This document shows, one piece after another, positions 9,402 to 10,265 of a stretch of 64,000 bases of DNA. A program made the position numbers and the translations under genes. Position 1 is the first letter of the stretch, and each line of letters opens with the position of its first letter. The notes under the pieces are model-generated. The model was given only the letters and a program-made list of their open reading frames with translations, was not told the origin of the DNA and searched no databases. This stretch comes from Chloroflexota bacterium. Lineage in GTDB: Bacteria; Chloroflexota; Dehalococcoidia; Lucifugimonadales; Lucifugimonadaceae. Where the stretch lies: contig JAQBUH010000003.1 in assembly GCA_027624075.1 (NCBI GenBank), positions 88,569 through 152,568 on the forward strand. The letters are read 5' to 3'.

Positions 9402-10265
9402 TCACGCCTTCTCCCCGGTGGTAATCGGGCAACTGAGATCGTTGCCCCATAGCCGCCACGAACCGTCGAAGTTACGGACAGAGTCAAAGCCAAGCAGCTT
9501 CAGCACCCAGTATCCGTGCGCCGCACGGATGCCGCCCTGTCAATATGTGATCACGTTCTTGTCAGGTGTCACCCCGGCATCAGCCAGCATACGGCGCAAC
9601 TCGTCTGCATGCTTGATGGTTGGCACGTCGCCGCCCGTGTGGAAGTTCAGCCACTCCAGGTGGACCGAGCCTGGTATGTACCCGCCTCGCAGGCCACCTC
9701 GCTTGTTGGACCCGTCCCGCTCACTGTCAGAGCGCACATCGAGGATCACGGTGTCGCGGTCTTCGATCGCCGCCAGCACATCCTCTTTTAAAGCGATGAC
9801 TGCCCGGTTTTCGCGCGGCGTGAACCTGCCCGGTGGCGGTGACGGGACCTCTGTTGTCACGGCGCGGCCTTCTGCAATCCATTTCGGCAACCCGCCGTCA
9901 AGCATCTTTCCCCTGGTGTTGCCGTAGTAGCTGAGCGACCAGAGCAGCCGCAGGGAGTAGAGGCCGCCGTGCGAGTCTGTTGCGACCACGACCGTGTCAT
10001 CGCCGATTCCGAGGCTGGACATCGTCTGTGCGAACTGCTCCGGGCCCTGGATGTGAGTCCTGTCCTCGCCGGAGGTCTTGTAGTAGTTGTCTGCCACGCC
10101 GGCAGCGCCGGGAATGTGCTTCTCGGCGTATTCAGGCGGGTAATTGGTATCGACGATACGCACGTCAGGGTCGCCGAGGTGCTCTGCGAGCCAGTCTGTT
10201 GTCACAAAGAGCGAAGGGTCTGCGTAGCCGCGCTTTTCCGGTGGAGTTATCTGTTGAAGGCTCAT
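9402..10265 (-). CDS. Rhodanese-family sulfurtransferase, candidate selenoprotein (in-frame TGA at 9540-9542 at the catalytic Cys position)
   Basis: The 241-aa ORF ends VITY-TGA; the same frame continues QGGIRAAHGYWVLKLLGFDSVRNFDGSWRLWGNDLSCPITTGEKA to a TGA at 9402-9404. Cys homologs read VITYCQGGxRAAH. Total about 287 aa. Confidence 0.85.
9508..9534 (-). promoter_or_regulatory. Candidate bacterial SECIS stem-loop
   Basis: mRNA sense: UGA CAGGGCGGC AUCCGUGC GGC GCACGGAU ACUG. Perfect 8-bp upper stem, GGC loop starting 18 nt after the UGA, plus a 3-bp lower stem (CGG/CUG) across one C/A mismatch. Confidence 0.75.

What the first reader, a model, noticed from the sequence alone, without database searches (positions are those of the whole stretch)
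9508..9542. SECIS-like hairpin immediately downstream of the rhodanese TGA
Seen: UGA-CAGGGCGGC-AUCCGUGC-GGC-GCACGGAU, a perfect 8-bp stem with a GGC triloop, 17 nt between UGA and loop, and a possible lower stem CGG/CUG across a C/A mismatch. Established: bacterial SECIS elements sit within the coding region just after UGA, with a small apical loop carrying G in the first two positions roughly 16-37 nt from the UGA. Such a long perfect stem inside coding sequence at that spacing is unlikely to be chance given the adjacent TGA.
Basis: partly seen in the sequence, partly recalled or inferred. Interest (0 to 1): 0.8.

Follow-up and report, generated by a model that had tools for sequence, protein, structure and literature searches.

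The report
Selenocysteine rhodanese with its SECIS hairpin
The stop codon in the middle of this sulfur-transfer enzyme gene is almost certainly read as the rare amino acid selenocysteine at the enzyme's active site, directed by an RNA hairpin just downstream that is kept in relatives using selenocysteine and missing in relatives using cysteine; the enzyme family is already known as a selenoprotein, so this is a well-supported new member rather than a new kind of system.

Summary
The interpretation also holds, but not for the reason given. By folding energy or generic SECIS rules alone this GC-rich hairpin is only weakly unusual (z about -1; about 0.5% of the window's TGAs have one). Comparison decides it. 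The UGA sits exactly at the catalytic-cysteine codon of a tandem-domain rhodanese (residue 242). Among 122 homologous copies (window included once), 64 of 70 TGA copies form the same 6-bp core with a G[G/U]C loop; 0 of 52 Cys copies do. Synonymous sites are frozen (Arg247 CGT 62/70 versus 6/52), and one base pair is exchanged in a compensatory way about 5 times on the tree. In two Sec/Cys sister pairs the Cys copy lacks the hairpin. The genome carries tRNA-Sec, SelA, SelB and SelD (itself with an in-frame TGA). Only the inner 6 bp are conserved; the outer 2 bp and lower stem are not. A Sec-containing COG2897 rhodanese with a predicted SECIS was reported in 2005, so this is a new, well-supported member of a known kind, common in Dehalococcoidia.

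The parts
9405..10265 (-). Tandem-domain rhodanese (sulfurtransferase) coding sequence read through the in-frame UGA, 287 residues with Sec at 242; the natural stop is the UGA at 9404-9402
   Evidence: Translation with TGA=U; Pfam Rhodanese PF00581, two stretches; PDB matches to rhodaneses, best 1uar 2.4e-52 over residues 13-285; Cys orthologs P0003-P0007 are 287 aa and end at the same place
9540..9542 (-). UGA codon 242, at the catalytic-cysteine position (VITY-U-QGGIRAAHG), read as selenocysteine
   Evidence: Aligns with the Cys of the active-site loop in 1uar/3hzu/8k55 and with TGC/TGT in 52 homologs; 70 copies (window included) have TGA there
9512..9530 (-). SECIS hairpin AUCCGUGC-GGC-GCACGGAU; conserved core = inner 6 bp (9528-9523 with 9519-9514) and G[G/U]C loop 9522-9520
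   Evidence: Core formed in 64/70 TGA copies and 0/52 Cys copies; pair counts with double changes; folding
9508..9534 (-). Possible lower stem CGG/CUG (9534-9532 with 9510-9508) across a C/A mismatch; forms in this sequence but is not conserved
   Evidence: Present in the single-sequence fold, absent from the alignment consensus
9402..9404 (-). UGA codon 288, the normal stop of the gene
   Evidence: Cys orthologs end here; relatives use TAG, TGA or TAA as the next in-frame stop

Best explanation
The gene is a selenoprotein: a two-domain rhodanese-type sulfurtransferase (COG2897/SseA-like) whose catalytic residue is selenocysteine 242. In the mRNA, the hairpin starting 9 nt after UGA242, with its G[G/U]C loop 17 nt from the codon, acts as a bacterial SECIS element. 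SelB carrying Sec-tRNA-Sec binds its loop and upper stem and delivers Sec to the ribosome at UGA242 instead of release factor 2 terminating; translation then runs 45 more codons to the normal stop at UGA288. The selenolate then does the job of the rhodanese cysteine: it takes a sulfane sulfur from a donor (forming Se-S) and passes it to a thiol or cyanide-like acceptor. Shown here by sequence: the codon position, the hairpin and its Sec-specific conservation, and the Sec machinery. Inferred from established bacterial Sec biology: SelB binding and actual insertion. Inferred from the rhodanese family: the chemistry; the physiological donor and acceptor are unknown.
For: (1) UGA242 falls on the catalytic Cys of the C-terminal rhodanese domain. 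(2) Homologs in 296 genomes of the class plus named contigs: 71 TGA (the window counted twice), 46 TGC, 6 TGT at this codon. (3) 6-bp core with G in the first two loop positions: 64/70 TGA versus 0/52 Cys, Fisher 4e-28 (rows not independent); reproduced in unseen loci elsewhere in the phylum, 3/3 versus 0/5. (4) Synonymous sites frozen only in the TGA set: Arg247 CGT 62/70 versus 6/52, Ala248 GCG 65/70 versus 18/52. (5) Covariation: pair 15-29 is C-G in 34, G-C in 9 and A-U in 1 of 44 distinct rows, never broken; 14 double-change cells against 3.3 in shuffles, 0/500 as high; 5 changes on the tree. (6) Sister pairs L085/L081 and L118/L139 (same genus codes): TGA with hairpin versus TGC without. 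(7) The genome has tRNA-Sec with anticodon UCA (69.3 bits, cut-off 47), SelA 461 bits, SelB 331 bits, SelD 372 bits with its own in-frame TGA. (8) SelB over its cut-off in 38/38 well-assembled genomes whose rhodanese has TGA, versus 20/31 with the Cys form. (9) Codons after the UGA are constrained: 14 synonymous versus 4 nonsynonymous codon changes to L055, 15 versus 7 to L056.
Against: No protein or reporter evidence. The single-sequence folding z-score is not significant, and generic SECIS rules also accept the hairpin after the natural stop UGA288. One TGA homolog (L061) has a C-A mismatch in the core, and five (L115 twice, L118, L124, L128) use a hairpin in another register. The SelD UGA in the same genome does not carry the same hairpin sequence, and a model of this one finds no second copy in the genome, so a common SelB-recognised motif was not shown.
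Confidence: 0.96

Rival explanations
1. The TGA is a true stop or a sequencing error/pseudogene: the product is a 241-residue protein lacking the catalytic residue, and the hairpin is a by-product of GC-rich coding sequence.
For: Automatic gene calls end here: many database homologs are exactly 241 aa ending ...KNVITY. The folding z-score is weak.
Against: The same TGA recurs in 70 copies at one codon; the 45 codons after it are under purifying selection and align to full-length Cys orthologs; hairpin conservation is specific to TGA copies.
Confidence: 0.02
2. The hairpin is imposed by the conserved protein motif QGGIRAAHG rather than by selection on RNA.
For: The motif is conserved in both groups, and with this peptide a 6-bp core arises in 2.5% of random synonymous codings.
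Against: 0/52 Cys copies, many with the same QGGIRAAH peptide, form the core; Arg247 CGT is 62/70 versus 6/52; compensatory codon changes keep the pair when residue 251 changes from Gly to Ala.
Confidence: 0.01
3. UGA is decoded by something other than selenocysteine (near-cognate readthrough, stop reassigned to Trp or Cys), with the hairpin as a readthrough stimulator.
For: A downstream hairpin can promote readthrough in general; decoding was not measured here.
Against: Complete Sec machinery in the genome; SelB present in all well-assembled TGA-rhodanese genomes; the codon alternates with Cys only; UGA is also the gene's ordinary stop.
Confidence: 0.01

Closest known systems
Sec-containing rhodanese-related sulfurtransferase COG2897 (SseA), Sargasso Sea selenoproteome (PMC1088965); MQG53192.1 in PMC9312934; 'rhodanese-like form 4, UxxG' in PMC13188914
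   Same: Same enzyme family, Sec in place of the catalytic Cys with motif U-x-x-G (here U-Q-G-G), predicted SECIS just downstream, marine/environmental origin.
   Different: Those reports rest on few sequences (3 in 2005) and the passages read name no host lineage; here the host is Chloroflexota (Dehalococcoidia), with a near-invariant SECIS, compensatory changes and Sec/Cys sister pairs. Direct identity to those accessions was not computed.
Bacterial SECIS element (bSECIS model, PMC13188914)
   Same: Loop 3-9 nt, stem 4-16 bp, G[G/U] at the start of the loop, 16-37 nt from UGA, energy below -7.5 kcal/mol: all met.
   Different: Primary sequence is far more conserved across the phylum (CGUGCGGCGCACG) than the low resemblance reported between bSECIS elements of different genes; small GGC/GUC triloop; no bulged U was identified.
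E. coli fdhF SECIS / SelB system (own knowledge)
   Same: UGA, downstream hairpin with a G-U or G-G loop, SelB and tRNA-Sec present.
   Different: The fdhF element has a longer stem with a bulged U17 and a larger loop; this one is a short perfect stem with a triloop.

Membership tests
Bacterial SECIS element | Stem of 4-16 bp with apical loop of 3-9 nt | tested here: met
   8-bp stem, 3-nt loop; conserved core 6 bp
Bacterial SECIS element | G in one of the first two loop positions, usually G[G/U] | tested here: met
   GGC in the window; G invariant in column 21, GGC or GUC loops in all 44 aligned rows
Bacterial SECIS element | 16-37 nt between UGA and apical loop | tested here: met
   17 nt
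Bacterial SECIS element | Minimum free energy at or below -7.5 kcal/mol | tested here: met
   -15.2 kcal/mol for 40 nt
Bacterial SECIS element | Conserved with UGA and absent with Cys codon; compensatory changes | tested here: met
   64/70 versus 0/52; 10 rows with a double change at one pair
Bacterial SECIS element | Binds SelB and directs Sec insertion | not testable with these tools
   SelB gene present; binding and insertion need experiment
Selenoprotein family: rhodanese-related sulfurtransferase COG2897 (Sec form) | Two rhodanese domains, SseA-like | tested here: met
   PF00581 two stretches, best 161-275; SseA 3hzu 1.3e-40; NCBIfam PRK11493 (3-mercaptopyruvate sulfurtransferase) 127 bits, below its equivalog cut-off of 250
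Selenoprotein family: rhodanese-related sulfurtransferase COG2897 (Sec form) | In-frame UGA at catalytic Cys, motif UxxG, with Cys homologs | tested here: met
   U242-Q-G-G; 52 Cys homologs
Selenoprotein family: rhodanese-related sulfurtransferase COG2897 (Sec form) | Direct sequence match to the published accessions (AACY01016424, MQG53192.1, MCY3690685.1) | not tested
   These records were not retrieved
Sec-decoding organism | tRNA-Sec, SelA, SelB, SelD in the genome | tested here: met

The most novel reading that the evidence does not exclude
The near-invariant 13-nt core CGUGCGGCGCACG across Chloroflexota rhodaneses is a lineage-specific, sequence-read SECIS that SelB of these bacteria recognises by stem bases as well as by the loop, unlike the shape-based bSECIS model; the Sec/Cys sister pairs then record repeated recent gain or loss of Sec together with its SECIS.
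Probability: 0.25. Interest if true: 0.55.

Novelty: new member of a known kind. Interest (0 to 1): 0.42.

Why it matters
It turns a misannotated, truncated rhodanese, which databases store as many 241-residue proteins without a catalytic residue, into a selenoenzyme that is common in Dehalococcoidia (Chloroflexota). It also gives an unusually clean natural experiment: about 13 Sec/Cys changes on one protein tree, with the RNA hairpin present or absent together with the codon. This is useful for studying why a sulfurtransferase would prefer selenium and how SECIS elements arise and decay.

Tried and rejected
Rfam found nothing at the site, at gathering or permissive thresholds, so it gives no support either way. 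Single-sequence folding significance was tried and is weak. Generic bSECIS scanning gives about 0.5% hits among all TGAs and also hits the natural stop UGA288, so it was not used as proof. A covariance model of the element searched against the own genome found only itself plus noise: L146 and a tRNA region, L148, so no further selenoprotein with this SECIS was found. The SelD UGA was checked for the same hairpin and has a different, bulged one. Pseudogene, sequencing-error and peptide-constraint explanations were considered and rejected on the comparative data. Searches of the paper library for a Sec rhodanese in SAR202/Dehalococcoidia found nothing.

Full report
What is there. On the minus strand an ORF at 10265-9540 encodes 241 residues of a rhodanese and ends at UGA 9542-9540. 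Read through with TGA as Sec, it continues ...KNVITY-U-QGGIRAAHGYWVLKLLGFDSVRNFDGSWRLWGNDLSCPITTGEKA to a stop (UGA) at 9404-9402, 287 residues. Pfam finds two rhodanese stretches. The solved rhodaneses 1uar, 3hzu and 8k55 align over nearly the whole length, and residue 242 lies on their active-site loop cysteine (that this cysteine is the persulfide-forming residue is established knowledge of the rhodanese family).

How strong is the hairpin by itself. Not very. Folding z-scores are -0.70 and -1.16. Ten of 1986 TGAs in the window have an 8-bp or longer SECIS-like hairpin. The natural stop UGA288 of the same gene also passes the generic rule. With the peptide fixed, the 6-bp core would arise in 2.5% and the 8-bp stem in 0.3% of random codings.

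Comparison decides. Homologs were taken from 296 genomes of the same class and from named Chloroflexota contigs. The codon at position 242 was TGA in 71 cases (70 without the duplicate of the window), TGC in 46 and TGT in 6. In the TGA set codons 246-251 are nearly frozen as ATC-CGT-GCG-GCG-CAC-GGA, while the Cys set uses codons freely: CGT for Arg247 in 62/70 versus 6/52, GCG for Ala248 in 65/70 versus 18/52. The 6-bp core with G in the loop forms in 64/70 TGA copies and in none of 52 Cys copies (Fisher 4e-28; rows are related, so this is descriptive). The six exceptions are L061 (one C-A mismatch) and L115 twice, L118, L124 and L128, whose hairpins start their loops 20 nt after the UGA with GGU, GUUG or GUUC. 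Eight further loci, outside the first sample, agree: TGA copies L154, L155 and L156 have the core; Cys copies L157-L161 do not.

Covariation. On 44 distinct rows the inner six pairs hold in all but one cell. Pair 15-29 is C-G 34, G-C 9 and A-U 1; pair 18-26 is U-A 41 and G-U 2. Double-change cells are 14 against 3.3 in shuffles (0/500 as high), and slid registers fall far below. On the protein tree the 15-29 pair changes at least 5 times.

Sec and Cys forms exchange repeatedly: at least 13 changes on the quick tree, 8 forced by well-supported branches. Two close pairs with the same genus codes are instructive. L085 (TGA) has the hairpin and its sister L081 (TGC) does not; L118 (TGA) has its GUUG-loop hairpin and its sister L139 (TGC) lacks it. 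The root is not known, so gain and loss cannot be told apart.

Machinery. The window's genome holds tRNA-Sec with anticodon UCA, SelA, SelB 635 aa and SelD with its own in-frame TGA. SelB exceeds its cut-off in 50 of 57 genomes with a TGA rhodanese; the seven misses are all below 90% complete, so it is 38/38 in good assemblies. With the Cys form it is 34 of 49 overall and 20 of 31 in good assemblies. 'Cys form' refers to the copies fetched; a second copy could have been missed.

The region after the UGA is coding. To L055 and L056 there are 14:4 and 15:7 synonymous to nonsynonymous codon changes after the UGA, against 90:57 and 101:54 before it. Full-length Cys orthologs P0003-P0007 (72-79% identical) are 287 aa, the length predicted here, while automatic calls of TGA orthologs are typically 241 aa and end at ITY.

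Comparison with the known. A Sec-containing COG2897 rhodanese with a predicted SECIS was reported from the Sargasso Sea in 2005 (3 sequences; PMC1088965). It appears in later lists (PMC9312934; PMC13188914, 'form 4, UxxG'; COG2897 and related rhodanese entries in PMC2398784). The bSECIS constraints given in PMC13188914 are all met. The finding is therefore a new, well-documented member of a known selenoprotein family. What appears unreported in the library searched is its breadth in Dehalococcoidia, the near-invariant SECIS sequence and the loss of hairpin with the codon in sister pairs (searches found no paper, in an open-access library only).

What is shown and what is inferred. Shown: codon, position, hairpin, its Sec-specific conservation, machinery. 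Inferred: SelB binding, Sec insertion, selenolate sulfur transfer. Physiological substrates are unknown; the neighbouring genes (a thioredoxin-like protein with Redoxin/AhpC-TSA match, a hemA-type glutamyl-tRNA reductase and a class-III aminotransferase) do not settle them.

Noticed in passing
L020 1501-2427 (window's own genome, contig C31): SelD of the same genome has an in-frame TGA near its N-terminus (...TGC GCC GGT TGA GCG GGT AAG...), a second likely selenoprotein; the RNA after it folds into a bulged hairpin with a UGUG loop about 32 nt downstream, unlike the rhodanese element.
   Followed up: partly
L118 and L139; L085 and L081: Same-genus sister pairs in which one rhodanese has TGA with a hairpin and the other TGC without: natural Sec/Cys switch pairs.
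   Followed up: partly
L115 (two adjacent copies): Two neighbouring TGA rhodaneses in one genome with a different SECIS-like hairpin (AGGU-CGUC-GGU-GA[C/U]G-UACCU) whose loop starts 20 nt after the UGA.
   Followed up: no
window 9402-9357, minus strand: The natural stop UGA288 is followed by a 7-bp hairpin with a GGACUA loop 26 nt away that satisfies generic bSECIS rules; a caution about such rules in GC-rich genomes.
   Followed up: partly
Protein database entries P0002, P0008, P0100, P0104 and similar: Many stored proteins of exactly 241 aa (one cluster with 279 members) end at ...NVITY and are probably selenoproteins truncated by gene callers.
   Followed up: partly
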